Source: Rufibacter sp. DG15C
GTDB lineage: Bacteria > Bacteroidota > Bacteroidia > Cytophagales > Hymenobacteraceae
Length of the DNA stretch: 64,000 nt
NCBI RefSeq assembly: GCF_001577755.1
Contig: NZ_CP010776.1
Coordinates: 2,294,001 to 2,358,000, forward strand
Direction of reading: 5' to 3'
The notes under the pieces are model-generated. The model saw nothing but the letters and a program-made list of their open reading frames with translations. It did no database searches and had not been told where the DNA came from. Of this stretch, positions 939 to 62,680 are shown piece by piece. The stretch's first letter is position 1. Every line of letters starts with the position of its first letter. Position numbers and translations under genes: made by a program.

Positions 939-978
939 CCGTTTTTGGCCTGATTTTCAGAATTCAGGCTAAAAACGG
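939..978. repeat. Palindromic intergenic repeat, copy R1
   Basis: Arms CCGTTTTTGGCCTGA and TCAGGCTAAAAACGG around a TTTTCAGAAT-like centre, 8 bp after the stop of the DUF4139 gene. It belongs to the family of about 28 copies in this window. No U-tract follows the right arm. Confidence 0.85.
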
Positions 979-1129
979 ACCTTTGCCTTTCAAAAAAAAC
1001 TCCCAAGAATAATCAGTCCATTCAAGCAACCAGACAAGCTTCTTCGGCATCTTCTGGATAGAGGTTCACGCTAACGCATTTTCTGGAACGGAATTTGTCT
1101 TAGCTTGAATATCAGTAAAAGTTAATATT

Positions 1130-3484
1130 ATGAAAGCACACCTACACTTCCTCGTTTTCACTGCCTTGCTCTTGGTGAGCGGTCAGGCAATGGCGCAGTC
1201 TAAGGTTATCTATGACCAAAAGCGCCAGGAATCTTTTGCTATTTCTAGCGTGGACAATCAGGCCTTGGCTAGAATGGCCGAGGAGTTGGAGATGCCTTCC
1301 AACAGACGGACCAGACTATTGTTGCCCATAGAATTTGAACAGCAGGAGCGCATCACCAAAAGCGGCGGGCAGATTACCCTGTCTGTGCAGGTGCGTAATG
1401 TGCGCGTGCGTGACCGGGTGCCGTACCGTGGGTTTGACATGGCGCAGGCCTTTGACCCAAGCGTGATAAGTGCCAAGGTGCAGCTGTTGGGCCGCGAGGA
1501 TAAAGTATTGCAAACCATCACCGTGGCCAGCAAAGATATTAACCGTGACGGTTCTGCCGAGCTGGTACAGGCCACCATTCAAGACACTTCTGCCTTTGAA
1601 GGCTATAAACTGCGCGTGATAGACCGCACCCTGGACTTCTCTGCCCGCAACAGAAACGCGGTAGGTGAGCGCGTGGCCTTGGTGAAGGAGTATTATGAGA
1701 TGGACGGCGGCCTGGCGCAACTGTCCAGAGAACTGCAGGCCATCAACCCCAATGACTTAGACTACCTGGCCCAGCACAAGGACCGCCTTATTGCGTTGCA
1801 AGCCAACCTGGACCGCTTAGAGCGTAAGAACCTGGATCGCGAACTGGACCTGAACCAGCACGACCCCATCCAGCTGAGACGCAAGATGAAGGACCTGGCC
1901 TACCAATTTAAGGAGCGCGCCTTGGCCCTGGACCAGATGTACGCCCGCCTGCCAGAGATTTTCTACAGCCGCGGCCTGGAACTGGCCATGAACGGAAACG
2001 TGCGTGGCGGCCGGGATTTCTTCATGCGCTCCATTCAGGCCAATCCAACCTTCGCGCCGTCTCACCTGCAATTGGCCAGGCTGGACCTGAAAGAAGGCTA
2101 CGTGAAAGAAGCCGGCCAGCGCACCCGCGACATCCTGAATGGCATGCAACCAGACCCAGAAACCTACCGCTTCGCGCAGGAACTGGCCCTAGACATCCAG
2201 AATGACTACGTGCGCGAAGGCGAAAAGCTCAACAACCAAGGCAAGTACCGCGAGGCCCTGCAGGAGTTTGAAGACGCCCGTGAGTTCTGCCGAAGCATCT
2301 CTAGCCTTCGTTGCCGCCCAGAGCTGTGGGACAGAGGTATTGCCCAGGCCAAGAACGGTATCTATGACACTTATTTAAAGGATGGACAAAAAGCCTTAGA
2401 CCAAAAGCAACTAGGCCAAGCTGAGAAGATTGCCCGTGATGCCCAGGCGTTCGCACAGCAGAACAAAACCGCCATTGGTGATGACGTAGACGCCCGCAAC
2501 TTAATGCGCGAAGTGCAACAACAGTATTACGCCAACTTCATGGCCGACGGCAGAAAAGCCCTGCAGGCCAAGCAGTACAGTAACGCCCTTGCTGCGTTTG
2601 AGAAAGCCAAAAACAAAGCCCTGGATTACCAGTTAAAGGAGCAGGCAGACGCAGTTTCATTGACCCGTCAAGCAGCCAAGCCAGTATTGCTTTCTAAGAT
2701 TGCGGTGGCTGAGAATCAGGCTTTGGGTAATTTGTTAGCCCAAGCCCGCACCGCCGCTGGTGAGGTATCTGCTATGCAAGTGAAATACGGTCTGGTAAAC
2801 GACAAAGACCTGGATGTGAAGTTCAGAGGCTTAAGCCAGCGCATTTTCTCACAAGAATGCCAGAACGCCCAAGCCGCCTATGACCAGCATTACAGAACTG
2901 CCCTGCAGTTGAGCTCTGAGAAGAAATTTCACCTGGCCGCCAATGCTTTGGAAGAAGCCATTGCAAGTGCCAGAGAGAACGGCGGCTGTGCCATCTCTAC
3001 CGCCACCGCAGACGTAGAGTTGACTCGCATAGACGCACCCGCCCGCTATCAAGAGATGCTGATTCAGGTAGATGGTTTGGTGAGTAAAGGCCAGATGGCC
3101 GAGGCCGTGCAAACTTACTTACAGGCCGGCCAACAGTACCAGGATGCGGACTTGATGCGCTTCGGGTTAGTACATACGTCTTTGGTGACCTTCGGGGTAC
3201 AGCACGCCAACAAAACCTTCATCGCCGAGGTGGCCAAATACGTCGCCGCAAACGCTGAACCAACCGCCGCCATTGACCTGCTTAAGCGCTTAATCGTGCT
3301 GGACTACTCTGGCTATAACCTGAACAAACTACAGGAACTAGTAGGCGAACAACTAGCCACCAGAGACGCTCAGGCCAACCCAAAAGCCAACTATAAAGCC
3401 ATGGCAGAAACCTACACCGCCGGCAACAAAGACCTGAAAAAGCTCAACAAAGCCTATCAGAAGAAATTCAAGAAATTGACCTAG
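1130..3484 (+). CDS. Secreted TPR-rich protein of unknown function
   Basis: A 784-residue protein that starts with a signal peptide (hydrophobic core FLVFTALLLVSG, likely cleavage after AMA at residue 22), so it should be exported to the periplasm or surface. The middle and C-terminal parts are alpha-helical with TPR-like units, for example residues about 275-340 and segments such as YREALQEFEDA and YSNALAAFEKAKNKA. There are only a few cysteines and no catalytic motif that I recognise. It stands alone: the upstream gap is about 200 bp and a strong hairpin terminator follows the stop by 6 bp. It could be a scaffold or envelope-assembly factor, but that is only a guess from the repeats. Confidence 0.85.
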   Translation: MKAHLHFLVFTALLLVSGQAMAQSKVIYDQKRQESFAISSVDNQALARMAEELEMPSNRRTRLLLPIEFEQQERITKSGGQITLSVQVRNVRVRDRVPYRGFDMAQAFDPSVISAKVQLLGREDKVLQTITVASKDINRDGSAELVQATIQDTSAFEGYKLRVIDRTLDFSARNRNAVGERVALVKEYYEMDGGLAQLSRELQAINPNDLDYLAQHKDRLIALQANLDRLERKNLDRELDLNQHDPIQLRRKMKDLAYQFKERALALDQMYARLPEIFYSRGLELAMNGNVRGGRDFFMRSIQANPTFAPSHLQLARLDLKEGYVKEAGQRTRDILNGMQPDPETYRFAQELALDIQNDYVREGEKLNNQGKYREALQEFEDAREFCRSISSLRCRPELWDRGIAQAKNGIYDTYLKDGQKALDQKQLGQAEKIARDAQAFAQQNKTAIGDDVDARNLMREVQQQYYANFMADGRKALQAKQYSNALAAFEKAKNKALDYQLKEQADAVSLTRQAAKPVLLSKIAVAENQALGNLLAQARTAAGEVSAMQVKYGLVNDKDLDVKFRGLSQRIFSQECQNAQAAYDQHYRTALQLSSEKKFHLAANALEEAIASARENGGCAISTATADVELTRIDAPARYQEMLIQVDGLVSKGQMAEAVQTYLQAGQQYQDADLMRFGLVHTSLVTFGVQHANKTFIAEVAKYVAANAEPTAAIDLLKRLIVLDYSGYNLNKLQELVGEQLATRDAQANPKANYKAMAETYTAGNKDLKKLNKAYQKKFKKLT

Positions 3485-3490
3485 CCCCTA

Positions 3491-3533
3491 AACAAGAACG
3501 GCCTCCTTTACTAAGGGAGGCCGTTCTTGTTTA
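3491..3533. terminator. Intrinsic terminator after the TPR protein, bidirectional
   Basis: Inverted repeat with arms AACAAGAACGGCCTCC and GGAGGCCGTTCTTGTT around a short loop, followed on the plus strand by TT. Its A-rich left flank lets it also serve the convergent ppx-like gene. Confidence 0.85.
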
Positions 3534-3560
3534 TGATGGAATTGTATTTTGTTTCAAGGT

Positions 3561-3600
3561 CTGTTTTAGGCTTGTTTTCTAGGAAATAGGCCAAAAGCGA
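3561..3600. repeat. Palindromic intergenic repeat, copy R2
   Basis: A degenerate copy (CTGTTTTAGGCTTG ... AATAGGCCAAAAGCG) with a CTAG centre, in the gap between convergent genes and next to the canonical terminator at 3491-3533. Confidence 0.7.
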
Positions 3601-3614
3601 AAGCTAACTTTATG

Positions 3615-4708: not shown

Positions 4709-4749
4709 TCGTTTTTGGCCTCTTATATGAAAAACAGACCAAAAACGGC
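4709..4749. repeat. Palindromic intergenic repeat, copy R3
   Basis: Arms CGTTTTTGGCCT and AGACCAAAAACGG with a degraded centre (CTTATATGAAAAAC). It lies about 40 bp upstream of the MITE-like element. Confidence 0.78.
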
Positions 4750-6014: not shown

Positions 6015-6052
6015 CGTTTTTGGTCTGTTTTCCTGAAAGTAGCCCAAAAACG
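6015..6052. repeat. Palindromic intergenic repeat, copy R4 (between divergent genes)
   Basis: Arms CGTTTTTGGTCTG and AGCCCAAAAACG, centre TTTTCCTGAAAG. It lies between the start of the minus-strand methyltransferase and the start of dapF, where no transcript should end. Confidence 0.8.
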
Positions 6053-6930: not shown

Positions 6931-6976
6931 CATTCTGTTTTTCACCTAATTTCCAGAAAACAGCCCAAAAACAGAA
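6931..6976. repeat. Palindromic intergenic repeat, copy R5
   Basis: The outer arms ATTCTGTTTTT and AAAAACAGAAT pair perfectly although they depart from the family consensus; the centre is TTTCCAGAAAA. The right arm ends about 10 bp before the ATG of the next gene. Confidence 0.82.
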
Positions 6977-10278: not shown

Positions 10279-12502
10279 CCTTGAGCTTTGGGGCGGCATT
10301 GAGTGTACAGTCAACCGGGTAGGGGACCGTTACTTTGATCAGCTGGCACAGAGCGGGCATGCACAGAGGCTGTCAGACTTAGAAGCATTGGCAGACCTGG
10401 GCATCAAGAAATTACGGTACCCTGTGCTTTGGGAGCACGTAGCCCCAGAACATCCAGAAAACCTGAATTGGGAATGGGCCACTGAGCGGTTAGATAAACT
10501 GCGCGCCCTTCACATAGATCCTATTGTGGGCCTGCTGCACCATGGCAGCGGCCCGCAGTATACTAATTTGCTTGACCCCGGCTTCCCAGAGAAGTTTGCG
10601 GCCTACGCTAAATCCGTGGCCAAACAGTTTCCTTGGGTCACGCATTACACGCCCATCAACGAGCCCTTGACCACAGCCAGGTTCAGTGCCTTGTATGGGT
10701 TGTGGTACCCGCATGCCCAAGACGATGCCTCGTTTGTCAAAGCACTCTATCACCAGATAAAAGGAACGCAACTGGCCATGCAGGCCATCCGGGAAATTAC
10801 CCCTGAGGCCAAACTGGTGCAGACCGATGACCTGGGCTACATCCATGCTACACCCACCCTTCAATACCAAGCCGACTTTGAGAACCACAGACGCTGGCTC
10901 TCTTGGGACATGCTAGCTGGTAAAGTTGATAAAAGCCATCCGTTATGGGGCTACTTAATCAGCTCTAAGCTACCTGCTCAAGACTTGCTGGATTTTGTAG
11001 CGAATCCCTGCCCGGCAGACATCATTGGCGTGAATTACTACGTGACCAGTGAACGGTACTTAGACGAGCATTTAATCCAATATCCGGTCCATACCCATGG
11101 CAGCAACGGGCAGCACCGCTACGCAGACGTAGAGGCGGTGCGCGTAAGTGCGGCCACGCCGGTGGGCCTGCAAAAGCTATTGACAGACGCCTGTGACCGC
11201 TACCAGAAACCAGTGGTGGTAACCGAAGCCCATTTGGGATGCTCCAGAGAAGAACAGATGCGGTGGCTGCATGACGTTTGGGATTCTGCCCTGTTTTTAC
11301 AGAAACAAGGCAAAAACGTACCGGCTGTAACGGCTTGGTCCTTACTAGGCTCCTTTGACTGGAACACCCTGCTCACCCAGTCTAATGGGCATTATGAGTG
11401 CGGCGTGTTTGACGTAAGAAGTGGCACGCCCCGGCCAACGGCGGCAGCGCACCTCTTGAAAAAACTTGCCGCTGGCGAAGACGCTCATCCCATTGCTCGC
11501 CTGCCCGGTTGGTGGAAACGTCCATCCAGAGCTATTTACCCAGACACCCAAGATTATACAGAGTGTTATGCCTTGTCCTGTGAAGAGAATGAGCACAAGC
11601 CCATTTTAATCACCGGCGCCACTGGCACCTTAGGCCGGGCCTTCGCCAGAATCTGCGAAGACCGCGGTTTGCCCTACGTGCTTTTGACCCGGCAGGACAT
11701 GGACATAGCCGATGCAGACTCTGTTGAAGAAGCCTTCGCCAAATACAAGCCGTGGGCCGTAGTCAATACCGCCGGCTACGTGCGCGTAGATGACGCCGAG
11801 GAAGATTCTGTGGCCTGCTACCGCGAAAACACCCAAGGACCTGTGTGTCTGGCTAAGCACTGTCATGCCCATCACATTGCCTTAGTGACGTTTTCCTCAG
11901 ATTTAGTCTTTGACGGGGATAAACAGGAGCCTTATGTTGAAACCGATCAGCCCAACCCATTAAACATCTATGGTAGCAGCAAACTGCTGGCAGAGAATCA
12001 GGTGCTTGTCGCTATGCCAGAAGCCTTGGTAATTAGAACTAGCGCGTTTTTTGGCCCATGGGATGAACATAACTTTGTGTACCATGCCCTGCGCGCCTTC
12101 GCGCAGGGGGAGCAGTTTACTGCCTGTGAGGATGCCTATATCACGCCTACCTACGTTCCAGACTTAGTGCATGCCAGCCTTGATTTGCTCTTGGATAAGG
12201 CGCATGGCATTTGGCACGTGGCCAACCAAGGTACCTATACGTGGGCCCAATTGGCTGAGCTTTCTGCCAAGGTGGCGGGTTTGGAGTCCGCTCCGTATCT
12301 GCAAAACGTTTCTCAAAATGAAATGAACCTACCAGCGCCTAGACCATCTTTCACGGCCTTGGCCTCCGGCAAAGGAATTCATTTGCCTAGCGTAGAAGAT
12401 GCTTTGGGTAGATTCCTGCGCCAAAGTGAGGTGCCTTTCAGACCGCAAGAAGTAGCGGTAGAAGAGCCAGATGCTTCCTTTGAAATGGCGGCGCAAGCCT
12501 AA
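10271..12502 (+). CDS. Fusion: GH1-like glycosidase domain + RmlD-like sugar-nucleotide reductase
   Basis: A 743-residue two-module protein. Residues 1-400 form a family-1 glycosidase-like barrel: INEP (129-132, candidate acid/base E131) and VVVTEAHLG (candidate nucleophile E319 replacing the usual TENG context). Residues about 445-720 form an extended SDR: ITGATGTLGRAFA (447-459, NAD(P) loop), FSSDLVFDG, and YGSSK (Y567, K571), as in dTDP-4-dehydrorhamnose reductase. No signal peptide is visible, so it is likely cytosolic. It overlaps glf by 8 bp. The two modules suggest coupled synthesis and trimming of a sugar donor, or a non-hydrolytic role for the barrel. Both are inferences. Confidence 0.87.
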   Translation: MGNLELWGGIECTVNRVGDRYFDQLAQSGHAQRLSDLEALADLGIKKLRYPVLWEHVAPEHPENLNWEWATERLDKLRALHIDPIVGLLHHGSGPQYTNLLDPGFPEKFAAYAKSVAKQFPWVTHYTPINEPLTTARFSALYGLWYPHAQDDASFVKALYHQIKGTQLAMQAIREITPEAKLVQTDDLGYIHATPTLQYQADFENHRRWLSWDMLAGKVDKSHPLWGYLISSKLPAQDLLDFVANPCPADIIGVNYYVTSERYLDEHLIQYPVHTHGSNGQHRYADVEAVRVSAATPVGLQKLLTDACDRYQKPVVVTEAHLGCSREEQMRWLHDVWDSALFLQKQGKNVPAVTAWSLLGSFDWNTLLTQSNGHYECGVFDVRSGTPRPTAAAHLLKKLAAGEDAHPIARLPGWWKRPSRAIYPDTQDYTECYALSCEENEHKPILITGATGTLGRAFARICEDRGLPYVLLTRQDMDIADADSVEEAFAKYKPWAVVNTAGYVRVDDAEEDSVACYRENTQGPVCLAKHCHAHHIALVTFSSDLVFDGDKQEPYVETDQPNPLNIYGSSKLLAENQVLVAMPEALVIRTSAFFGPWDEHNFVYHALRAFAQGEQFTACEDAYITPTYVPDLVHASLDLLLDKAHGIWHVANQGTYTWAQLAELSAKVAGLESAPYLQNVSQNEMNLPAPRPSFTALASGKGIHLPSVEDALGRFLRQSEVPFRPQEVAVEEPDASFEMAAQA

Positions 12503-12521: not shown

Positions 12522-12565
12522 AGCCGTTTTTGGCCTGATTTTCAGAAATCAGGCCAAAAACGGCT
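12522..12565. repeat. Palindromic intergenic repeat, copy R7 (perfect 18-bp stem)
   Basis: Arms AGCCGTTTTTGGCCTGAT and ATCAGGCCAAAAACGGCT pair perfectly around TTTCAGAA. It is followed by TTTTT, so this copy could act as an intrinsic terminator for the sugar operon. Confidence 0.9.
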
Positions 12566-12737: not shown

Positions 12738-15700
12738 ATGTTTGATTTTTTTGGGAAGACAGTCGCCAAACTTTTCGGCACTAAGTCAGAACGGGACATC
12801 AAAGAAGTAATGCCGTACGTGGCTCTTATCAACCAAGAGTTCGCAAAACTGGCCTCCCTTTCTGACGACGAACTGCGCCAACGTACCCAGCAGGTACAGG
12901 CTACCATTGCCGAGCGTCTGAAACCCATTGATGATAAAATAGCGGCCTTACACCAACGCATAGAAAACGAGCCAGACCTGGACATAGCCCAGAAGGAAGG
13001 CGTTTTCGTGCAGATTGACGAGCTGGAGAAAGACCGCAACAAAGAACTGGAGGTAGTGCTTATGGAAGTGCTGCCCCAAGGCTTTGCCATTGTCAAAGAA
13101 ACCGCCCGCCGGTATAAAGAAGTTGGTCAGCTAAGTGTAACTGCCACAGACTTTGACCGTGAGATTGCTACCCGCAAACCAAACGTACAGCTACAAGGCG
13201 ACAAAGCTGTTTGGGCCAACCGTTGGAACGCCGCCGGTACTGAGGTGGTATGGGACATGGTGCACTATGACGTACAGCTGATTGGTGGAATTGTCTTGCA
13301 CCAGGGTAAAATCGCCGAGATGGCCACGGGTGAGGGGAAGACGTTGGTAGCAACCCTGCCATCGTTCCTGAATGCACTTGCCAAGCGCGGCGTGCACGTG
13401 GTAACCGTGAATGATTACCTGGCCAAGCGTGACTCTGAGTGGATGGCGCCCTTGTTTGAGTTCCATGGCATCACCATTGACTGTATTGACAAGCACCAGC
13501 CTAACACAGACGCCCGTCGCAAAGCCTATCTAGCAGACATCACCTACGGTACTAATAACGAGTTCGGGTTTGACTACCTGCGCGACAACATGGCCCGTGA
13601 GGTAGATGAGCTGGTACAACGCAAGCACCACTACGCCATGGTGGATGAGGTGGACTCCGTTTTGATTGACGATGCCCGTACGCCGCTCATCATTTCTGGT
13701 CCTGTTCCACGTGGTGATGAGCACGAATTCTATATCCTGAAACCACGTGTGGCTTCTCTGGTAGAAGCCCAGCGCAAGTTGGTAAGCAACTTCCTGGTGG
13801 AGGCCAAGCGCCTAATCAAGGAAGGCAACGACAAAGAAGGCGGTCTGGCCTTATTCAGAGCCTACAGAGGTTTGCCTAAAAACAAGCCTTTGATTAAGTT
13901 CTTGGGTGAGACCGGGGTGCGCCAGTTGTTATTGAAGACAGAGGCCTTCTACCTGCAAGACCACTCGCGTCAGATGCCAGAGGCAGATGCGCCGTTGTTC
14001 TTCACTATTGACGAGAAACACAACCAGATTGAACTAACGGAGAAAGGCATTGACTTGATTACAGGTCAAGGCGAAGACCCGCAATTGTTCATCCTCCCAG
14101 ATATTGGAACCGAGATTGCCAATATTGAAAGCCACAAAGAACTGTCAGCTGACGATAAACTGCACCAAAAAGAAAAGCTTATCCAGGATTACCAGGAGAA
14201 GTCTCAGCGCGTGCACTCCATCAACCAGTTGCTGAAAGCCTACACCCTTTTTGAGAAGGACACTGAGTACATTGTGACCGAAGACCACAAGGTAAAGATT
14301 GTGGATGAGCAGACGGGCCGCGTCATGGAAGGCCGTCGTTATTCAGACGGTTTGCACCAGGCCATTGAAGCCAAGGAGAACGTGCGCGTAGAAGATGCTA
14401 CGCAGACCTATGCCACGGTAACGCTTCAGAACTACTTCAGAATGTACCACAAGCTGGCCGGTATGACCGGTACGGCTGAGACGGAAGCCGGTGAGTTCTG
14501 GGAAATCTACAAGCTGGACGTGGTAGTGATTCCTACCAACCGCGTAGCCCAGCGCAAGGATGAGCATGACAAGGTTTATAAAACCATCAGAGAGAAATAC
14601 AACGCCGTTGCCGAAGAGATTCAGGAGCTGACCAAACAGGGCCGTCCGGTGCTGGTGGGTACTACCTCGGTAGAGATTTCTGAGTTGGTGAGCCGTATGC
14701 TTAAGATACGCGGCATTCCGCACCAAGTCTTGAACGCCAAGCATCACCAGCGCGAGGCTGAGATTGTAGCCGAAGCCGGTAAGCCAGGCACTGTGACCAT
14801 CGCCACCAACATGGCCGGTCGTGGTACGGACATTAAGCTGGCGCCTGAATCTAAGGCCGCCGGCGGATTGGCCATCATTGGTACTGAGCGCCATGAGTCG
14901 CGCCGCGTAGACCGCCAGTTGCGTGGTCGTGCCGGTCGTCAGGGTGACCCGGGTTCTTCGCAGTTCTTCGTTTCATTGGATGACAGCTTAATGCGCTTGT
15001 TCGGTTCTGACCGCATTGCCCGTTTAATGGACCGTATGGGTCTGGAGGAAGGTGAAGTGATTCAGCACTCCATGATCACCAACTCCATTGAGCGTGCCCA
15101 GAAGAAAGTGGAGGAAAACAACTTCGGGACGCGTAAGCGCCTCTTGGAGTATGATGACGTGATGAACGCCCAGCGCGAGGTGGTGTACAAACGCCGTCGC
15201 AACGCCCTCTACGGCGAGCGTCTGGAGCTGGACATCTGGACCATGATTGACGACACCGCGGTGGACATTGTGAACACCTACAAAGTGACGGGCAACCATG
15301 AGGACTTCTTGTTGCACATCATCAGAGTATACGGTTTCAATACCAGCATCACCGCCCCAGAATTAGCGTCACAGCCGGTAAATACCTTGATTGACCGCTT
15401 GTACAACGAGGCCTTAGATTTCTACCTGGGCAAGAACAAGCACATCATGGAGCAGTCGGCGCCAATCATGAAGGACATTTATGAGAACCGCGGCCCGATG
15501 ATTGAAAACATTGCGGTTCCGTTCTCAGATGGTCGTAAGCAAATCACTGCGGTGGCTAACCTGGAGAAAGTGGTGAACAGCCATGGCAAGGAGCTCATCA
15601 AAACCGTTGAGAAAATCATCACGCTGGCGACTATTGACCAAGCATGGACGCAGCACCTACGCCAGATGGACGACCTGAAGCAAAGTGTGCAGAATGCGGT

Positions 15701-16121
15701 GTACGAGCAGAAAGACCCACTCTTGATTTACAAGTTTGAGTCGTTTGAGTTGTTCAAGCGCATGATTGCCAAAGTGAACGAGGAGACCATCTCTTTCTTG
15801 TTCAAGGCAGACTTGCCACAGCAACAGGAGCAGGCACCACCGGTGCAGGAAGCCCGCGCTACGCAAGCGCCAAGACCGCCAAGATTGCAGGAGCAGAAAG
15901 AAGAAGTACATTCAACGCTAGAAGAGCAGCGCGTTCCATCTATGCCAAACATGCCAGAGGCGCCCGTGCAAAAGCAGGCACCTATCAGGGTAGAGAAGCA
16001 CGCCGGCCGCAATGACCGCGTGAGCGTGCAGTACGCAGACGGACGTGTGATGAAAGACGTGAAGTACAAGACCGTAGAAAACGACTTGCTCAACAACCGT
16101 TGCATCCTCATTGAAGACTAA
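12738..16121 (+). CDS. secA: Preprotein translocase subunit SecA
   Basis: A 1127-residue SecA ATPase, the motor that drives precursor proteins through SecYEG. Walker A is MATGEGKTL (195-203), the DEAD-box-like motif II is MVDEVDSVLIDDA (301-313), and NMAGRGTDI plus QLRGRAGRQGDPG mark the second helicase domain. It is longer than E. coli SecA (901) because of insertions, including a helical stretch at about 335-400, as is usual in Bacteroidota. The tail ends in DLLNNRCILIED and has no Zn-binding Cys cluster. A proline- and glutamine-rich linker precedes it. A 235-bp upstream gap holds repeat R7 and presumably the promoter. Confidence 0.98.
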   Translation: MFDFFGKTVAKLFGTKSERDIKEVMPYVALINQEFAKLASLSDDELRQRTQQVQATIAERLKPIDDKIAALHQRIENEPDLDIAQKEGVFVQIDELEKDRNKELEVVLMEVLPQGFAIVKETARRYKEVGQLSVTATDFDREIATRKPNVQLQGDKAVWANRWNAAGTEVVWDMVHYDVQLIGGIVLHQGKIAEMATGEGKTLVATLPSFLNALAKRGVHVVTVNDYLAKRDSEWMAPLFEFHGITIDCIDKHQPNTDARRKAYLADITYGTNNEFGFDYLRDNMAREVDELVQRKHHYAMVDEVDSVLIDDARTPLIISGPVPRGDEHEFYILKPRVASLVEAQRKLVSNFLVEAKRLIKEGNDKEGGLALFRAYRGLPKNKPLIKFLGETGVRQLLLKTEAFYLQDHSRQMPEADAPLFFTIDEKHNQIELTEKGIDLITGQGEDPQLFILPDIGTEIANIESHKELSADDKLHQKEKLIQDYQEKSQRVHSINQLLKAYTLFEKDTEYIVTEDHKVKIVDEQTGRVMEGRRYSDGLHQAIEAKENVRVEDATQTYATVTLQNYFRMYHKLAGMTGTAETEAGEFWEIYKLDVVVIPTNRVAQRKDEHDKVYKTIREKYNAVAEEIQELTKQGRPVLVGTTSVEISELVSRMLKIRGIPHQVLNAKHHQREAEIVAEAGKPGTVTIATNMAGRGTDIKLAPESKAAGGLAIIGTERHESRRVDRQLRGRAGRQGDPGSSQFFVSLDDSLMRLFGSDRIARLMDRMGLEEGEVIQHSMITNSIERAQKKVEENNFGTRKRLLEYDDVMNAQREVVYKRRRNALYGERLELDIWTMIDDTAVDIVNTYKVTGNHEDFLLHIIRVYGFNTSITAPELASQPVNTLIDRLYNEALDFYLGKNKHIMEQSAPIMKDIYENRGPMIENIAVPFSDGRKQITAVANLEKVVNSHGKELIKTVEKIITLATIDQAWTQHLRQMDDLKQSVQNAVYEQKDPLLIYKFESFELFKRMIAKVNEETISFLFKADLPQQQEQAPPVQEARATQAPRPPRLQEQKEEVHSTLEEQRVPSMPNMPEAPVQKQAPIRVEKHAGRNDRVSVQYADGRVMKDVKYKTVENDLLNNRCILIED

Positions 16122-19063: not shown

Positions 19064-19103
19064 CCGTTTTCAGCCTAATTCCTGAAAAACAAGTCAAAAA
19101 CGA
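19064..19103. repeat. Palindromic intergenic repeat, copy R10
   Basis: A degenerate copy: CCGTTTTCAGCCT, centre AATTCCTGAAAAAC, right arm AAGTCAAAAACGA. It precedes the putative hsp20 operator by 5 bp. Confidence 0.68.
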
Positions 19104-19882: not shown

Positions 19883-21376
19883 ATGAAAACGAAACAACTA
19901 ATGCTAGGCCTAATGCTCTCTGCCATGATGGGCGGGGGCGTGGCCATTGGGGGCTATAAACTGCTGGAAGATGATCAGCCCACTGCGGGACAGCAGTTGC
20001 CCAACACCAACGTACGGTACACCAGTGCCATGCGGGACGGCAAGGTGGTAGTGCCAGAAGGCTTGAACTTCCAGACGGCCGCCGAGCTGGTGACCCCGGC
20101 CGTGGTCCACGTGACCACGGAATACAAAATGCAGACGCGCCAGATGCCAAGTGAGATGCACCCGTTCTTCCGTGATTTCTTCGGGGACGAGGGCATGGAA
20201 GGGTATCAGCGCCAACAAGGTCCGGCCCTGGGCTCAGGCTCTGGGGTGATCATTGCCTCCAACGGCTACATTGTCACCAACAATCACGTGATTGACAAGG
20301 CAGACAAGATTGAGGTGATCATGGACGACAAGCGTAAGTTTGAAGCCACCCTGGTAGGCTCAGACCCGAACACGGACATTGCCCTGCTGAAAATCAACTC
20401 TGACAACCTACCGGCTTTGCGCTACGCCAACTCAGACAACGTGAAAGTGGGCGAGTGGGTATTGGCCGTGGGTAACCCGTTCAACCTCAACTCAACCGTG
20501 ACGGCTGGTATCATCAGTGCCAAAGGCCGCAACGTGGGTATTCTTCAGAATTCCAGCGGCATGAGCGTAGAGTCCTTCCTGCAGACAGACGCCGCCGTGA
20601 ACCCTGGTAACAGTGGGGGCGCTTTGGTGAACCTGAACGGTGATTTGATTGGGATCAATACGGCCATCGCGTCGCAGACTGGTACCTTCTCTGGCTACTC
20701 GTTTGCCGTGCCATCCGCCATTGTAAGCAAAGTGGTAGATGACTTGTTGAAATACGGCGAAGTGCAGCGCGCTTTGCTAGGCGTGCAGATGCAAGAGATT
20801 GACGCCAAGTTTGCCGCCGAGAAAAAGCTGAAAAACCTGAACGGGGTGTACGTGGCTGGTTTCTCTGAGAGCAGCGCCGCCAAGTCTGCCGGTATTGAGG
20901 AAGGTGATGTAATCACCGAAATCAACGGCGTGAAGGTGAACACAGGTGCCCAGTTACAAGAGCAAGTGACCCGCTACCGTCCTGGTGATAAAATCAAGGT
21001 GGGTTACAGCCGTGACGGTAGCACCAAATTGACCAACGTGACCTTGCGCAATGCCAATGGTAGCACAGAGATTGTGAAACGTGATCCTAACTCGCCTAAG
21101 TCCATGACCATTGCGGGCGCCAAGTTTGAGGCAGCCTCCAAGCAAGAGTTGAACCGTCTGGACATTACGGGCGGCGTGAAAATCTCTGGTATTGAGAAAA
21201 GCACCTTCGCTGAGTCTGGCATCAAAGACGGTTTCATCATCACCCAGATTGACAAGAAGCCTACCAACTCGCCAGAAGACGTGAATGAAATCTTACGTGG
21301 CACTCGTCGGGGTGGTCTCTTGATTGAAGGCGTGTACCCAGACGGCCGTAGGGCCTATTACGCCATTGGTCGTTAG
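19883..21376 (+). CDS. DegP/HtrA-type periplasmic serine protease (Do family)
   Basis: A 497-residue trypsin-like protease with an N-terminal membrane or signal segment (LMLGLMLSAMMGGGVAIGGY). The catalytic triad is complete: H135 in VTNNHVID, D165 in DPNTDIALLK and S244 in NPGNSGGAL. Two PDZ domains follow (about 280-375 and 395-490), the first holding GVYVAGFSESSAAKSAGI and the second GVKISGIEKSTFAESGI. This architecture fits envelope protein quality control. It follows the Hsp20 gene in the same direction with its own spacer and terminator, so proteostasis genes cluster here. An M/P-rich loop (about 85-112) matches the LA loop position. Confidence 0.95.
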   Translation: MKTKQLMLGLMLSAMMGGGVAIGGYKLLEDDQPTAGQQLPNTNVRYTSAMRDGKVVVPEGLNFQTAAELVTPAVVHVTTEYKMQTRQMPSEMHPFFRDFFGDEGMEGYQRQQGPALGSGSGVIIASNGYIVTNNHVIDKADKIEVIMDDKRKFEATLVGSDPNTDIALLKINSDNLPALRYANSDNVKVGEWVLAVGNPFNLNSTVTAGIISAKGRNVGILQNSSGMSVESFLQTDAAVNPGNSGGALVNLNGDLIGINTAIASQTGTFSGYSFAVPSAIVSKVVDDLLKYGEVQRALLGVQMQEIDAKFAAEKKLKNLNGVYVAGFSESSAAKSAGIEEGDVITEINGVKVNTGAQLQEQVTRYRPGDKIKVGYSRDGSTKLTNVTLRNANGSTEIVKRDPNSPKSMTIAGAKFEAASKQELNRLDITGGVKISGIEKSTFAESGIKDGFIITQIDKKPTNSPEDVNEILRGTRRGGLLIEGVYPDGRRAYYAIGR

Positions 21377-21414
21377 TTTTGAGCCGATTCCTGAAAAATA
21401 AGCCAAAAACGGCC
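21376..21414. repeat. Palindromic intergenic repeat, copy R11
   Basis: GTTTTGAGCCGATT, centre TCCTGAAAA, right arm AAGCCAAAAACGGCC. It begins at the htrA stop codon and is followed 8 bp later by a separate canonical terminator. Confidence 0.7.
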
Positions 21415-23069: not shown

Positions 23070-23110
23070 CCGTTTTTTGGGCTAATTCCCAGAAAACAAG
23101 CCAAAAACAG
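23070..23110. repeat. Palindromic intergenic repeat, copy R12
   Basis: CCGTTTTTTGGGCT, centre AATTCCCAGAAAAC, right arm AAGCCAAAAACAG. It is directly fused to the canonical terminator that begins at 23108. Confidence 0.8.
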
Positions 23111-27453: not shown

Positions 27454-27494
27454 GGCGTTTTTCGGTTATTTTAGGAAAAACAGGCTAAAAACGG
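27454..27494. repeat. Palindromic intergenic repeat, copy R14
   Basis: GGCGTTTTTCGGTTA, centre TTTTAGGAAAA, right arm CAGGCTAAAAACGG. It ends 7 bp before the ATG of the RidA gene and follows a canonical terminator. Confidence 0.7.
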
Positions 27495-30379: not shown

Positions 30380-30420
30380 CGTTTTCGGGCTGATTTCCAG
30401 AAAAGAGGCCAAAAACGGCA
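30378..30420. repeat. Palindromic intergenic repeat, copy R15
   Basis: GCGTTTTCGGGCTG, centre ATTTCCAGAAAAG, right arm AGGCCAAAAACGGC. It begins at the mutS-like stop codon. Confidence 0.82.
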
Positions 30421-33240: not shown

Positions 33241-33282
33241 GTTCGTTTTTAGGCTGTTTTCTAGGAAAGAGCCCAAAATTAG
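33241..33282. repeat. Palindromic intergenic repeat, copy R16 (degenerate)
   Basis: CGTTTTTAGGCTG, centre TTTTCTAGGAAAG, right arm AGCCCAAAATTAG. The right arm has lost the terminal ACG. Confidence 0.6.
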
Positions 33283-34769: not shown

Positions 34770-34811
34770 GGCGTTTTTGGCCTGTTTCCCAGATATTAAG
34801 CAAAAAACGGA
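34770..34811. repeat. Palindromic intergenic repeat, copy R17
   Basis: GGCGTTTTTGGCCTG, centre TTTCCCAGAT, right arm AAGCAAAAAACGG. It lies between ndh and the separate terminator at 34819-34851. Confidence 0.78.
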
Positions 34812-37681: not shown

Positions 37682-37735
37682 TCAGAATTCTGTTTTTGGC
37701 CTATTTTCTGAGAAGTAGGTCAAAAACGGAATTCT
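37682..37735. repeat. Palindromic intergenic repeat, copy R18 (extended)
   Basis: CAGAATTCTGTTTTTGGCC ... AGGTCAAAAACGGAATTCT: the outer AGAATTC/GAATTCT flanks pair although they are outside the family consensus. Centre TATTTTCTGAGAAGT. It lies upstream of rplM and downstream of the pseudouridine synthase. Confidence 0.82.
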
Positions 37736-38518: not shown

Positions 38519-38560
38519 TTCCGTTTTAGCCTCCTTTTACGAAAACAGGTCAAAAACGAC
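38519..38560. repeat. Palindromic intergenic repeat, copy R19
   Basis: TTCCGTTTTAGCCTC, centre TTTTACGAAAAC, right arm AGGTCAAAAACGAC. It lies between two minus-strand genes, upstream of the pseudouridine synthase start. Confidence 0.65.
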
Positions 38561-40586: not shown

Positions 40587-40626
40587 CTCATTTTTGGCCT
40601 GATTCCCAGAAAACAAGCCAAAAACG
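40587..40626. repeat. Palindromic intergenic repeat, copy R20
   Basis: CTCATTTTTGGCCTG, centre ATTCCCAGAAAAC, right arm AAGCCAAAAACGA. It is directly followed by the terminator of the DUF3108 gene. Confidence 0.82.
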
Positions 40627-44339: not shown

Positions 44340-44382
44340 CCGTTTTTGGGCTATTTTCCAGAAAGGGAGCTAAAAACGGCTA
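44338..44382. repeat. Palindromic intergenic repeat, copy R21
   Basis: TAGCCGTTTTTGGGCT and AGCTAAAAACGGCTA arms around ATTTTCCAGAAAGGG. The stop of the preceding gene (TAG) is part of the left flank, which pairs with CTA on the right. Confidence 0.85.
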
Positions 44383-47885: not shown

Positions 47886-49331
47886 TTATACCGAAGCCGT
47901 AGGCTGCGTTTTTGGTCTGTTTTCCAGGAAATAGCCAAAAAACGGCTGAGACAGGTGCTTGGCCAGTTGAGAAGCCTGCTCACGCAACTCGGCAATGGCG
48001 TTGCTTTCCCACAACTCGCCCCGTCTGGACGAGCCCAAGGTGAACAAGCCCTGGCTGTGCGTGCCGTCTGGTTGGATGAGACTTCCCATCATGTCTACCT
48101 GCAAACCCATCTGTAAAGGATGCGCCACCGCCAGGTTCTGATGCAAAAGGGACTGCACCAACGGGTCTGGCACCGCATCATACTTAAGCTGCGGACCCGT
48201 GCAGTTAATGACGCGGTCTGCCAACACCGTTTCAGGAGTGAGGGTGTTTTTGGGCTGAAGGGTCACGGCTACTTTGTTCCCCTTTACAGCCATGGATTGC
48301 ACGCGGGCGGCCATCACTTGCAATTGACCGCTTTGCTGCATTTCTAGCACAGCGGTGTGCACTTGCGGCGGAAGCCGGTGCCGCACCACGCCCCACAAAG
48401 ATCCCAGCCTATGCATGAATTTGCGTTGCTCAGTGCGTGTGAGTTTCTGCCACATGGCGTGCGTATGCGGCCGTATGCCGTTGATCATTTCTTCCCAGCC
48501 TTGTCCCTGGTGCTGCTTTAATTCCTGATTGAACAACCGAACCATCTCCAGCAAAGAAGAAGCTTGCGCTATACGATCCCCGAAGGCTGCATTTGGTTGG
48601 CCAGACAGGTACGGACGCGGCAGGAACCCATTGGTAGAAACCGCCATTACCTTTCCTGTGAATCCCTGTTCCTGCAAACCAAGCAGCGCGTCAATGGTGG
48701 TAAGGCCCGTGCCCAGCAAAACCACGGTGGCGTCTGCAGGCAAATCCTGGAGGATGTCGGGGCGCCAGGGATCTGAAAAGTAGATAGGCGGTGTCAAAGC
48801 CTCGGTTTCCCTTGGTGCCACGCACCGCATGGGCGCCGGCTGAAAATTACCCAAAGCCAGCACTACCTGTTCGGCAGCTACTTTCTGGCCAGTTTCTAGT
48901 TCTATCTGGTAGGTTTGCTGTAAAAGATCTTTACTGGTAGTGAGTTTGGTGGCCCGCTCTGGCAATAGCGTAAACTTTTGGCTGTGCGTGTGGATGGTTT
49001 CCTGTAAAATAGCCTCTAAATATTCGCCGTACAGTTGCCTGGGCACAAAGGTATGGGCTATCTCCTCCAGCGTTGCATGCGCATAAATTGGTTGGGTTTT
49101 TAACCAATCTACAAAGTGGGTGGGTTGGTCTGGGAAGGCGCTCATGCGGCCAGCATGCACGTTGAGCAGGTATTTCTCTGAGTTTGCCGCGTACGCAACA
49201 CCTTTGCCCAGGGGATAGCCTTTGTTGATTAGGAGGACTTCTACGGGTTGGTGGGTTTGCCTGAGCAAATGGACGGCCACCATGGTTCCACTGAAACCTC
49301 CTCCAATAATTGCAATGGTCTTCCGGTGCAT
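47886..49331 (-). CDS. FAD/NAD(P)-binding protein of the NAD_binding_9 type, with repeat-encoded tail
   Basis: A 481-residue flavoprotein-like protein. The N-terminal fold is IAIIGGGFSGTMVAVHLLRQ (about 5-24) and PLGKGVAYAANSEKYLLNVHAGRMSAFPDQP follows, a hallmark of the group often annotated FAD-NAD(P)-binding domain (pyr_redox_9). A second Rossmann-like segment is DATVVLLGTGLTTIDALLGL. The last 20 residues (FFGYFLENRPKTQ and TASV) are encoded by palindromic repeat R22, so the natural end may have been moved by insertion or decay. Substrate unknown. Confidence 0.82.
   Translation of the reverse strand: MHRKTIAIIGGGFSGTMVAVHLLRQTHQPVEVLLINKGYPLGKGVAYAANSEKYLLNVHAGRMSAFPDQPTHFVDWLKTQPIYAHATLEEIAHTFVPRQLYGEYLEAILQETIHTHSQKFTLLPERATKLTTSKDLLQQTYQIELETGQKVAAEQVVLALGNFQPAPMRCVAPRETEALTPPIYFSDPWRPDILQDLPADATVVLLGTGLTTIDALLGLQEQGFTGKVMAVSTNGFLPRPYLSGQPNAAFGDRIAQASSLLEMVRLFNQELKQHQGQGWEEMINGIRPHTHAMWQKLTRTEQRKFMHRLGSLWGVVRHRLPPQVHTAVLEMQQSGQLQVMAARVQSMAVKGNKVAVTLQPKNTLTPETVLADRVINCTGPQLKYDAVPDPLVQSLLHQNLAVAHPLQMGLQVDMMGSLIQPDGTHSQGLFTLGSSRRGELWESNAIAELREQASQLAKHLSQPFFGYFLENRPKTQPTASV
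47905..47946. repeat. Palindromic intergenic repeat, copy R22 (inside coding sequence)
   Basis: GCGTTTTTGGTCTG, centre TTTTCCAGGAAA, right arm AGCCAAAAAACGGC. It lies within the 3' end of the FAD-protein gene and is translated as a tail. Confidence 0.85.
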
Positions 49332-49468: not shown

Positions 49469-49508
49469 TCGTTTTTGGGCTATTTTCCAGAAAACGGGCC
49501 AAAAACGA
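49469..49508. repeat. Palindromic intergenic repeat, copy R23
   Basis: TCGTTTTTGGGCTA, centre TTTTCCAGAAAAC, right arm GGGCCAAAAACGA. It lies between the MoxR gene stop and the FAD-protein start, both on the minus strand. Confidence 0.87.
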
Positions 49509-54349: not shown

Positions 54350-54397
54350 AAACCGTTTTTGGCCTGTTTTACAGGAAACAGGCCAAAAACGGTTTTT
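54350..54397. repeat. Palindromic intergenic repeat, copy R24 (perfect 20-bp stem)
   Basis: AAACCGTTTTTGGCCTGTTT and AAACAGGCCAAAAACGGTTT pair perfectly around TACAGG, flanked by TTTTT on the right. It lies between minus-strand genes. Confidence 0.92.
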
Positions 54398-57359: not shown

Positions 57360-58841
<1,482 letters not shown>

Positions 58842-58917: not shown

Positions 58918-58960
58918 GTTTGTTTTTGGCCTGATTTCAAGAAAATAAGCGAGAAATGAA
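58918..58960. repeat. Palindromic intergenic repeat, copy R25 (degenerate)
   Basis: TTTGTTTTTGGCCTG, centre ATTTCAAGAAAAT, right arm AAGCGAGAAATGA. The right arm is decayed relative to the family. Confidence 0.6.
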
Positions 58961-59476: not shown

Positions 59477-59519
59477 TGCTGATTTTAGCCTATTTTCCAG
59501 AAACCAGATTAAAATCGTC
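59477..59519. repeat. Palindromic intergenic repeat, copy R26
   Basis: CTGATTTTAGCCTA, centre TTTTCCAGAAACC, right arm AGATTAAAATCGTC. Both arms have changed (ATTTTAGCCT versus AGATTAAAAT), but the outer ATTTTA/TAAAAT remain complementary. Confidence 0.7.
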
Positions 59520-59960: not shown

Positions 59961-60003
59961 AAGCCGTTTTGGCCTCATTTCCAGGAAACAGGCCAAAAAC
60001 GCC
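59961..60003. repeat. Palindromic intergenic repeat, copy R27 (between divergent genes)
   Basis: AAGCCGTTTTGGCCTC, centre ATTTCCAGGAAAC, right arm AGGCCAAAAACGC. It ends 8 bp upstream of the pnuC start, in the promoter or leader region between divergent genes. Confidence 0.85.
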
Positions 60004-60011
60004 ATGTGCAT

Positions 60012-60784: not shown

Positions 60785-61648
60785 ATGAAACAAGCAATAC
60801 GCATCTGGCTTTCCTTGACCCTGACCTTCGGAAGTTTTGCCCCGCAGGTGTTTGCCCAGGAAACCGATTCCCTAAAAAAATACCAACCCCCCGTTCCGGC
60901 CCAGGACACGCTTAAAAAGTACCAGGACTCTACCGTTCACCAAGCCGCCACCAAGGCCCCGTTCTTTAAATCCAAAGCGTTTAAAGCCACCATTGTGCCG
61001 GCCATCTTAATTGGCTACGGACTCAGCACCATCAAAGGAAACGGTATTTACAGCAGCTATGACGCCCAGCGGGACCTGCAGCGCAACTTTCCCAACTTTA
61101 AGACCTCAATTGATGACGCCCTGCTCATTGCGCCCTACGTAGAGCTGGCGCTGGTGAATCTCTTGAACGTCAAGTCCAACCATGACTTTCTTAACACGGC
61201 CCTGGTGATAGTGAAAGCCGAAGCCATCTTCGGGATCACTGTTTTTGGCATAAAGCAGGTGTCTGACCTAGAACGGCCCAACAAGGAAAACTTTGAATCC
61301 ATGCCGTCTGGCCATACGGCGCAGGCATTCCTAGCTGCCTCCATTGTCCACTCAGAGTTGCGGCACAGAAGCCCTTGGTACGGAATTGGAGCGTATACCA
61401 TTGCCACCTCTGTGGGCGCGTTCAGGATGCTCAACAACAAACACTGGCAGAGTGATGTCTTTGTGGGCGCCGGTATTGGCATGCTGTCTTCCCACTTGGC
61501 CTACCTGTCGCACCGTAACCGCTGGGGAAGAAAGCCTTCTATTGTGATGTCTCCTACGTATGTGTTCGGGAAACCGGGCTTTGCCATGAACTTCAGTTTA
61601 GACGAGTATAAAAAGCGGAAGCAAAATCCCTTGTATTATAAAAACTAG
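60785..61648 (+). CDS. PAP2-superfamily phosphatase, membrane-anchored
   Basis: A 287-residue PAP2-type lipid phosphatase. The phosphatase motifs are KQVSDLERPN (motif 1), MPSGHTAQAF (motif 2, with the acid/base His) and RMLNNKHWQSDVFVGAGIG (motif 3). N-terminal signal (MKQAIRIWLSLTLTFGSFAPQVFAQ) and a conserved hydrophobic segment follow. It may act on undecaprenyl pyrophosphate or phosphatidic acid. Followed by a terminator. Confidence 0.93.
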   Translation: MKQAIRIWLSLTLTFGSFAPQVFAQETDSLKKYQPPVPAQDTLKKYQDSTVHQAATKAPFFKSKAFKATIVPAILIGYGLSTIKGNGIYSSYDAQRDLQRNFPNFKTSIDDALLIAPYVELALVNLLNVKSNHDFLNTALVIVKAEAIFGITVFGIKQVSDLERPNKENFESMPSGHTAQAFLAASIVHSELRHRSPWYGIGAYTIATSVGAFRMLNNKHWQSDVFVGAGIGMLSSHLAYLSHRNRWGRKPSIVMSPTYVFGKPGFAMNFSLDEYKKRKQNPLYYKN

Positions 61649-61691
61649 CGCCCTTTGAACGGGTAACCCCAACGCTATCAACCACTATACA

Positions 61692-61737
61692 AGCAGTCGT
61701 CTGTTGCCATGCGTGACAGGCGACTGCTCATTTTTTA
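61692..61737 (+). terminator. Intrinsic terminator after the PAP2 gene
   Basis: AGCAGTCG / CGACTGCT outer stem with an inner TCTGT/ACAGG-like continuation, loop TGCCATGCGTG, and TTTTTT after it. Confidence 0.82.
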
Positions 61738-61848
61738 ACCTCGCCAACGTCCCACTGAATGAAACGCCCCCAGGAAAAAGGAATGTTCTATTTTTGTCCG
61801 TCCAAGCATGCATGGAGTAATCAAGGCAGGTTCCTCGGTACTATTTAG

Positions 61849-62601
61849 ATGATGAAAAACTGGTTTTTAGCGGTAGCTTTTTTCTTAGGGTTGGGTGGCC
61901 ATTGGGCGCAGGGTCAGGTAGAAAGGAAATACACTACCCACGTGCAAGGTTGGTACATCTACAAGGGAGATCATTTCTTCACAGATAAATGGGGATTGAA
62001 CTCTGAGCTCCACCTAAGGAGGGCCCGTTTTCTGGACCCCTTGCAGTTGGTAGCCATAGGCGGCATTCATTACAAACTTACGCCAGACGTTCAAGTCACC
62101 GGATCCTACACTTTTACCCACACGCACCCGTATGGTGAGGCGCCCGCGCGCAACCATTTCACCGAGCACCGCCTCACAGAACAACTACAACTCAAGGCAG
62201 CCTACGGACCATTCTTGCTACAGCACCGGTTCAGGTTGGAGCAGCGGTTTATCAAGCGGCCAGCCCAGGAAAATGCTACCTTTCTGAACAGAACCCGCTA
62301 TCAACTAAAAGCGGTTCTACCGTTACTAGGAGCTACGTTAGAAGAGAAAGAGCCTTTTCTGGTTGCGTCTAATGAAGTGTTTATCAATTTCGGGGAGAAC
62401 GTGCAGGCCAATATTTTTGACCAGAACAGAGCTTATGTCGGGGTGGGCTATAAGTTGAGCCAAGCAGCGTCTTTTGAGGTTGGCTACTTGCATCAACTGG
62501 TACAGCAAAGCAACGGCATCAACTTTCTAAATAACCACACCTTGCAGTTCATGGTGAGCTACAACCTTACTTTCAAGCCCAAGCCAACCATCCCAAACTA
62601 A
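61849..62601 (+). CDS. DUF2490 domain protein, outer-membrane type
   Basis: A 250-residue protein with a signal peptide (WFLAVAFFLGLGGHWAQGQ) and beta-rich content with alternating aromatics (YTTHVQGWYIYKGDHFF, YKLTPDVQVTGSYTF, LQFMVSYNLTF), ending in a C-terminal strand typical of outer-membrane barrels. It matches the DUF2490 family; role not known. The 3' end is followed by R28 and the NadR-like kinase. Confidence 0.85.
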   Translation: MMKNWFLAVAFFLGLGGHWAQGQVERKYTTHVQGWYIYKGDHFFTDKWGLNSELHLRRARFLDPLQLVAIGGIHYKLTPDVQVTGSYTFTHTHPYGEAPARNHFTEHRLTEQLQLKAAYGPFLLQHRFRLEQRFIKRPAQENATFLNRTRYQLKAVLPLLGATLEEKEPFLVASNEVFINFGENVQANIFDQNRAYVGVGYKLSQAASFEVGYLHQLVQQSNGINFLNNHTLQFMVSYNLTFKPKPTIPN

Positions 62602-62638
62602 ACTAGTCAGCCGCTTTTTGCCTACCTTGGCCGGGTCT

Positions 62639-62680
62639 TCCGTTTTTGCCCCGTTTTCTGGAAAGTAGGCCAAAACCGAA
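62639..62680. repeat. Palindromic intergenic repeat, copy R28
   Basis: TTCCGTTTTTGCCCCG, centre TTTTCTGGAAAGT, right arm AGGCCAAAACCGAA. The centre is in the CTGG orientation, unlike most copies. It ends about 24 bp before the kinase start. Confidence 0.8.

What the first reader, a model, noticed from the sequence alone, without database searches (positions are those of the whole stretch)
939..62680. A dense family of about 28 intergenic palindromes
Twenty-eight short inverted repeats occur in 64 kb, about one per 2.3 kb and almost all between genes. Arms follow CGTTTTTGGCCTG and CAGGCCAAAAACG around a TTTTCCAGAAAA-like centre. If the density holds, a genome of several Mb would carry over a thousand copies. 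I recognise no named family with this consensus, although I could not search. Possible explanations are a REP/MITE-like unit spread by a RAYT-type or other transposase, a lineage-specific terminator design, or a protein-binding site.
Basis: partly seen in the sequence, partly recalled or inferred. Interest (0 to 1): 0.78.

Follow-up and report, generated by a model that had tools for sequence, protein, structure and literature searches.

The report
Genus-wide intergenic protein-binding palindromes
About a thousand or more 38-letter palindromes of fixed length sit, mostly singly, in the gaps between genes of this bacterium, its relatives in the genus carry their own versions, and they look like docking sites for an unknown DNA-binding protein rather than jumping DNA.

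Summary
The window holds 28 copies of a 38-bp palindrome of rigid length; the genome about 1,100-1,560. All 16 genomes held for the genus carry the family (44-1,969 matches to one generic pattern), against 12 matches in 134 sampled genomes of the rest of the family. It is not a REP/MITE: this genome has no RAYT match, 48 of 48 alignable sites are kept in the nearest species, and a site upstream of secA is in place in 16 of 16 species. T-tracts in each arm hardly change (0-3% against 24% in flanks) while the rest turns over, arms vary mostly independently, and the consensus differs between species. That is the signature of a dimeric DNA-binding protein, not of an RNA stem. Gaps tend to hold exactly one site (all gap types pooled). 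About one site in six, mostly 20-80 nt after a stop codon, has longer arms and a T-rich tail and probably doubles as a terminator; in several species the best-matching sites also show paired arms. The protein was not found; six paper searches gave no description. Best reading: an undescribed, fast-evolving set of intergenic boundary or nucleoid-protein sites; the boundary role is inference.

The parts
940..977 (.). 38-bp palindrome site, 8 nt after a stop codon
   Evidence: retained in G013
3562..3599 (.). 38-bp site in a convergent gap
4710..4747 (.). 38-bp site, tandem gap
   Evidence: retained in G013
6015..6052 (.). 38-bp site, divergent gap
   Evidence: retained in G013
6936..6973 (.). 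38-bp site, tandem gap, 7 nt after a stop codon
   Evidence: retained in G013
11281..11318 (.). 38-bp site inside a predicted gene, weak left arm; also in G013
12525..12562 (.). 38-bp site with perfect arms, ends 175 nt upstream of secA; orthologous place occupied in 16 of 16 species (some matches weak)
12738..16121 (+). secA, anchor gene for the synteny comparison
   Evidence: Pfam PF07517, PF21090, PF07516, PF01043
17354..17391 (.). 38-bp site with extended arms, tandem gap, 26 nt after a stop codon
18672..18709 (.). 38-bp site within a 31-nt-arm inverted repeat, terminator-like
19065..19102 (.). 38-bp site, same tandem gap as the previous
21374..21411 (.). 38-bp site overlapping a stop codon, marginal match (18 of 26)
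23072..23109 (.). 38-bp site, 6 nt after a stop codon
25423..25460 (.). 38-bp site overlapping a gene end
27456..27493 (.). 38-bp site, tandem gap
30380..30417 (.). 38-bp site at a gene end, within the predicted start of the next gene
33244..33281 (.). 38-bp site, tandem gap
34772..34809 (.). 38-bp site in a convergent gap
37691..37728 (.). 38-bp site, tandem gap
38521..38558 (.). 38-bp site, tandem gap
40589..40626 (.). 38-bp site, tandem gap
44341..44378 (.). 38-bp site filling a 40-bp convergent gap
   Evidence: retained in G013
47907..47944 (.). 38-bp site inside the predicted 3' end of a gene
   Evidence: retained in G013
49470..49507 (.). 38-bp site, tandem gap
   Evidence: retained in G013
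54354..54391 (.). 38-bp site with perfect arms
58921..58958 (.). 38-bp site, tandem gap
59480..59517 (.). 38-bp site, same tandem gap, marginal match (18 of 26)
59964..60001 (.). 38-bp site, divergent gap
62641..62678 (.). 38-bp site, tandem gap

Best explanation
The palindromes are in-place binding sites for an as yet unidentified dimeric DNA-binding protein of this genus. Each 19-bp half carries two T-tracts 11 bp apart, probably read through the minor groove, around a short stretch in the major groove that differs between species. Most intergenic regions with room keep one site, away from start codons and, in the tandem gaps where I detect an intrinsic terminator, mostly beyond it; so the most likely job is to mark or insulate the boundary between neighbouring transcription units. 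About one site in six, mostly 20-80 nt after a stop codon, is in addition the tip of a longer, probably terminating hairpin. Shown: in-place conservation, constraint on the T-tracts, rigid length, excess of gaps with exactly one site, genus limits in the genomes searched, different consensus in different species. Inferred: the protein, its dimeric state, groove contacts, the boundary role. Odds: binding site about 0.7, boundary role about 0.4; the last rival below shares the binding protein.
For: Rigid length. T at positions 3-4 and 14-15 is at 90% or more in 8 of 8 species sampled, though A-T pairs are weak for any stem; position 5 is that conserved only in G000 and G013 (the site models were seeded with these letters, so this alone is partly circular). 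Less circular: between G000 and G013, 48 of 48 alignable sites are kept, with 0-3% substitution at positions 3-5 and 14-15 against 24% in the flanks; 32 mirrored double changes against 23.8 expected, 10 of them fully compensated. Inner arm positions 7-17 pair no better than re-dealt arms (z -1.1, 317 sites). A site ends 162-175 nt upstream of secA in 16 of 16 species while arm sequences differ; site presence agrees between orthologous gaps in 5 of 5 species pairs. Gaps with 0/1/2/3+ sites: 171/222/25/0 against 271/89/32/26 at random. Divergent gaps hold sites when wide: 0 of 13 under 120 bp, 1 of 14 at 120-180, 42 of 78 above.
Against: No cognate protein was found. The best-matching sites show matched arms beyond chance at free positions in 5 of 6 species testable (z 2.8-4.8), and in G000 the outer positions and flanks pair beyond chance (z 5.5 and 9.5; small excess at positions 0, 2, 6, 7, 9), so pairing matters for a subset. 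The central CA/TG step is polar to transcription in tandem gaps (67 against 30), which a symmetric DNA site does not predict. In tandem gaps 138 of 177 sites lie nearer the upstream stop, and 136 of 163 such gaps with a site show no detected terminator, so many sites may be transcribed; promoters and transcript ends were not mapped. A stricter test puts the terminator wholly before the site for 20 of 29 tandem sites, against 24 of 27 gaps by start positions. Sites are only a little more frequent in tandem gaps with a detected terminator (27 of 50) than without (136 of 299).
Confidence: 0.62

Rival explanations
1. Lineage-specific intrinsic terminators or 3'-end mRNA hairpins: the sequence is kept because the RNA stem ends or protects transcripts.
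For: Sites lean to gene 3' ends; 51 of 317 sites have arms extended by 4 or more pairs, 35 of them among the 110 sites that lie 20-80 nt after a stop; the next 8 bases are T-rich (3.7 against 2.1 for sites with no extension); in convergent gaps they avoid separate terminators (5 of 16 against 42 of 59, p 0.007; tandem 2 of 30 against 19 of 110, p 0.25). Matched arms in the best-matching sites of 5 of 6 species.
Against: Five-sixths of sites lack the extension; inner arm positions do not compensate in G000 and few changes since G013 are compensated; 46 sites lie in divergent gaps; ordinary terminators are as frequent in convergent gaps with sites (44 of 65) as without (18 of 28); the least variable letters are T/A, not the G/C pairs.
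Confidence: 0.15
2. A REP/MITE-like mobile palindrome spread by a transposase of the RAYT or another kind.
For: High copy number, intergenic, palindromic. The other 15 genus genomes do have Y1_Tnp matches.
Against: No Y1_Tnp match in the window's 99.97% complete genome; no empty orthologous site among 48 alignable ones; same gaps across the genus; change is position-specific, not uniform; no conserved flank beyond a C or T at -1.
Confidence: 0.04
3. An uptake signal for natural transformation, kept by biased import as with the DUS and USS of other bacteria (recalled).
For: Copy number and species-specific consensus resemble uptake sequences (recalled).
Against: Long rigid palindrome, excess of gaps with exactly one, kept at a set distance upstream of secA in 16 species; uptake drive does not predict these.
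Confidence: 0.08
4. Global nucleoid-protein site without a boundary role: sites persist wherever intergenic DNA is free.
For: Present in all three gap types; even along the chromosome (2-12 per 20 kb in 40 stretches, variance 5.7, mean 7.5).
Against: The share of gaps occupied does not grow with length: 62-67% from 60 to 500 usable bases, 61% above; sites per gap rise only from 0.63 to 0.85.
Confidence: 0.25

Closest known systems
REP elements and RAYTs (GTAG- and CGTC-tagged palindromes)
   Same: 20-40 bp extragenic palindromes in high copy; CGTC repeats are reported from Bacteroidetes (PMC3733652: start of abstract and one passage seen).
   Different: No GTAG or CGTC foot, no RAYT match in this genome, no sign of mobility, consensus that differs between species at kept places.
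Sequence-specific chromosome-organising sites (Noc, MatP, SlmA sites; recalled)
   Same: Palindromic dimer sites spread over one chromosome, recognised by a dedicated protein.
   Different: Known sets count tens (recalled); this one counts about a thousand or more, is 38 bp, lies mostly in gaps and mostly singly.
DUS/USS uptake sequences (recalled)
   Same: About a thousand or more copies, species-specific, sometimes within terminators.
   Different: Those are short and not palindromes of rigid length.
HIP1 of cyanobacteria (recalled)
   Same: Highly iterated palindrome.
   Different: HIP1 is an 8-mer common inside genes; this is a 38-mer mostly in gaps.

Membership tests
REP/RAYT | RAYT (Y1_Tnp) gene in the genome | tested here: not met
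   PF01797: 0 matches in G000; the other 15 genus genomes have 1-6 each
REP/RAYT | GTAG or CGTC tetranucleotide at the palindrome foot | tested here: not met
   Arms begin CGTT; position 3 is T in nearly all arms of G000
REP/RAYT | Copies differ in place between relatives | tested here: not met
   48 of 48 alignable sites kept in G013; 16 of 16 species at secA; a few discordant gaps in each of five comparisons (1 to 8)
MITE | Target-site duplications and transposase-matched ends | not tested
   Flanks show no shared sequence beyond C/T at -1; duplications were not scored
Intrinsic terminator | G+C stem followed by a U-tract at a gene 3' end | tested here: inconclusive
   Met by a minority: 51 of 317 have extended arms; 14 of the 47 of these in tandem or convergent gaps have 5 or more T in the next 8. 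My terminator rule found the site's own hairpin in 17 of 271 gaps with sites. 46 sites lie in divergent gaps
RNA family in Rfam | Match to a curated model | tested here: not met
   0 matches at gathering score in the window
Dimeric protein-binding site | Independent half-sites with fixed spacing under purifying selection | tested here: met
   for the bulk; the best-matching subset departs from independence
Dimeric protein-binding site | Identified cognate protein | not testable with these tools
   A list of basic proteins from the sampled fifth of the genome showed no evident candidate
Uptake sequence | Raises DNA uptake | not testable with these tools
   Needs an experiment

The most novel reading that the evidence does not exclude
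A bacterial genus marks most of its roomy intergenic regions with one site each, over a thousand per genome, for a dedicated dimeric protein whose specificity changes from species to species, so that the whole site set is rewritten in place: a punctuation system that insulates neighbouring transcription units, with a partly palindromic counterpart of different sequence in at least one sister genus (G016).
Probability: 0.4. Interest if true: 0.87.

Novelty: new variant of a known kind. Interest (0 to 1): 0.74.

Why it matters
Known sequence-specific organisers of bacterial chromosomes act at tens of sites (recalled). A set of over a thousand, mostly one per gap, kept in place while its recognition sequence differs between species, would be a natural experiment in co-evolution of a protein with its whole set of sites, and would make the question of what separates neighbouring bacterial genes testable: one protein, one knockout, a thousand marked boundaries.

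Tried and rejected
RAYT transposition: rejected. Terminator design for the whole family: rejected, kept for about a sixth. Length variants of the centre: none beyond shifted matches. Presence on mobile DNA: one consensus query had no match in the plasmid and phage collections and one exact pattern none in IMG/VR (the tools warn that near kin of the window may be left out). A strong copy outside the genus (G035) was followed as a possible hint to the protein's own gene; it lies among small genes beside sequence that looks attC-like to me, so I take it for an acquired cassette. A search for gaps with three or more sites, which might mark an autoregulated gene, found none. A list of basic proteins from the sampled fifth of the genome showed no evident binder. 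The alignment was set aside because two of its nine rows (G005, G003) were in the opposite orientation. My early reading that arms never compensate was narrowed. The gene caller is my own hexamer method and the terminator finder a simple rule.
Full report
What is there. The window is part of a 4.14-Mb single-contig genome (G000:C1:2294001-2358000). It holds 28 copies of a 38-bp palindrome, 13-bp arms around a 12-bp centre; one arm with up to 2 mismatches is found 44 times against 2.9 expected. I read 40 further stretches of 20 kb, spread over the chromosome, 864 kb with the window. The two-arm scan gives 336 places at 18+ of 26 against 1 in one shuffle, 230 at 22+, and no other centre length tried (8-11, 13-16) gives more than one place at 22+. 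Site sets count 317-325 depending on the filter, about 37 per 100 kb or some 1,560 per genome by extrapolation. The pattern count for the genome is 735 within 3 mismatches, control 0.

Who has it. With the G000 consensus, 16 of 16 genus genomes match (1 to 917 places), 1 of 21 other family genomes and 0 of 22 from the rest of the order. With a generic pattern that leaves species-variable positions open, the 16 genus genomes have 44 to 1,969 matches; 9 of 134 other family genomes have 1 or 2, 12 matches in all; the reversed control hits 4 of the 150 genomes once each. The low count of G012 (44) probably reflects its own consensus, since its locus at secA has three good sites. Sampled stretches of six species give 35-59 sites per 100 kb with 0 in shuffles; at a slightly lower cut-off G015 and G008 give 61 and 64 (no shuffle run). 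Samples of 40-60 kb from five other genera and of G035 give 0-3 by the same models. That the genus is Rufibacter is my guess from genome size, G+C and number of species, not a result.

Species differ in consensus. Half-sites: G000 and G013 CGTTTTTGGCCTGTTTTC; G005 CGTTTAGGGGCTGTTTTT; G006 (T/C)GTTTT(A/G)GGCCTGTTTT; G003 and G004 looser, GTTT...GGCT.TTTT. In all eight sampled, T at 3-4 and 14-15 is at 90% or more; position 5 is T in 98-99% only in G000 and G013 and between 25% and 82% in the others (the G005 figure). The models were seeded with these T's, so the argument rests more on the next two paragraphs.

Sites stay in place. At secA (identified) the upstream site ends 162-175 nt from the start in 16 of 16 species, with arm sequences that differ; four of these matches are weak (20-25 bits). 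Orthologous gaps, window against five species, both/only G000/only other/neither: G013 20/0/1/15, G006 15/3/2/12, G015 15/2/3/13, G004 11/0/3/10, G008 14/3/5/13; Fisher p 0.002 to 3e-9. In about 184 kb aligned with G013, 48 of 48 sites are kept; local alignments could end at lost sites, which would hide some.

What is selected. Substitutions between G000 and G013 by position, of 96: 1, 0, 0 at positions 3-5, 1 and 3 at 14-15, 28 at position 9, 33 at position 12, 35 at position 18; flanks 309 of 1,300. Mirrored double changes 32 against 23.8 expected, 10 of them fully compensated. A stem would rather protect G-C pairs and swap them in pairs. In G000 the inner arm positions pair no better than arms dealt at random (7.51 against 7.57 pairs, z -1.1), the outer ones slightly better (6.26 against 6.16, z 5.5), the 8 flanking bases clearly (2.95 against 2.27, z 9.5). 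In a set picked by other positions, the small excess of matched deviations is at positions 0, 2, 6, 7 and 9, none at 8, 10, 12, 13, 16, 17.

Two classes. The flank signal comes from gene 3' ends: tandem near the upstream stop z 8.7, convergent z 6.4, other tandem 0.4, divergent 1.9, intragenic 0.1. Sites with arms extended by four or more pairs are 51 of 317; they make up 25 of 82 tandem and 10 of 28 convergent sites 20-80 nt after a stop, and 0-13% of the other classes; the 8 bases after them are T-rich (3.67 against 2.08 for sites with no extension), and in convergent gaps they avoid separate terminators (5 of 16 against 42 of 59, p 0.007; tandem 2 of 30 against 19 of 110, p 0.25). Across species the best-matching sites (20+ of 22 skeleton letters) show matched arms at free positions with z 4.8, 0.6, 4.4, 4.1, 4.6 and 2.8 in G000, G013, G006, G004, G003 and G005. 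The weaker classes mostly show none at these positions, with exceptions at G008 (17-19, z 3.2) and G015 (16 or fewer, z 2.0); flanks still pair in the 17-19 class of G000 (z 3.9), G005 (z 4.5) and G008 (z 2.7). So a minority are hairpins, most likely terminators built around the site, and the majority are not.

Where they sit. Of 325 sites 177 are in tandem, 75 in convergent, 46 in divergent gaps, 20 inside predicted genes, 7 at stretch ends; 138 of the 177 tandem sites lie nearer the upstream stop. Among gaps of 40 bp or more, 65 of 93 convergent, 163 of 349 tandem and 43 of 105 divergent hold one; convergent gaps of 120-180 bp 22 of 25; divergent gaps 0 of 13 below 120 bp, 1 of 14 at 120-180, 42 of 78 above. 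Detected terminators are about as common with sites as without in convergent gaps (44 of 65, 18 of 28) and start before the site in 24 of 27 tandem gaps with both; by a stricter count they end before it for 20 of 29 tandem sites, and in convergent gaps a terminator serving both genes lies on one side, so the site is beyond it for one gene only. Most tandem gaps with a site (136 of 163) show no detected terminator, so whether those sites are transcribed is open. With all gap types pooled, 418 permissive gaps hold 272 sites; gaps with exactly one are 222 against 89 expected, none has three, and 62-67% are occupied from 60 to 500 usable bases (usable length subtracts 38 bp and 70 bp per start-codon side, my choice). 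Tandem sites show CA rather than TG at the centre in the sense strand, 67 against 30 (p 0.0002, one of several such tests; strongest at 20-80 nt from the stop, 31 against 9), which I cannot explain.

Interpretation. Rigid spacing, symmetric and mostly independent half-sites, near-invariant T-tracts one helical turn apart, in-place conservation and species-wide change of the rest point to a dimeric DNA-binding protein with fast-changing specificity. The excess of gaps with one site, at a distance from start codons, points to a boundary role rather than regulation. The protein is not identified; the boundary role is inference.

Sister genera. The same 8-mer test that finds this motif in G000 (CGTTTTTG 68 against 1.5) finds AACGCTAT in G016 (29 against 0.7), TATATATA in G017 (72 against 2.2), CCCTAGGT in G019 (32 against 0.8), and nothing comparable in G018 and G020 (60 kb only). 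A 39-bp fit in G016, TTTT N7 AAAA at the centre, has 21 sites in 140 kb against 0 in a shuffle, 19 of the 21 in gaps, often with one strong half only; a 40-bp fit has 44 sites, 8 inside genes, and looser cut-offs bring in many inside genes (44 of 93). It may be a counterpart; this is a lead, not a result.

Literature. Six searches listed no paper that, by title and start of abstract, describes this family; I saw listings, and one passage of PMC3733652. Most subscription papers are not held.

Noticed in passing
L176-L178, L231-L234 (G016, sister genus g2): Own over-represented intergenic element of about 39 bp, AAAACGCTATAC TTTT N7 AAAA GTATAGCGTTTT, often with only one strong half.
   Followed up: partly
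L184-L186, L226-L230 (G019, genus g5): CCCTAGGT strongly over-represented: 97 places on the two strands of 160 kb, 32 of them in gaps, so mostly outside gaps; HIP1-like.
   Followed up: no
L179, L180, L215-L220 (G017, genus g3): TATATATA over-represented, 72 counts in gaps against 2.2 expected, 108 counts in all with both strands counted.
   Followed up: no
L190:8561-8700 (G035): A strong copy outside the genus lies beside sequence that looks attC-like, among small genes, as in an integron cassette array; that it is an acquired cassette is inferred.
   Followed up: partly
tandem-gap sites of the window and L001-L040: Central step is CA rather than TG on the sense strand, 67 against 30; unexplained.
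   Followed up: partly
window:45971-46026 and window:3489-3533: Long near-perfect inverted repeats unrelated to the family, probably ordinary terminators.
   Followed up: no
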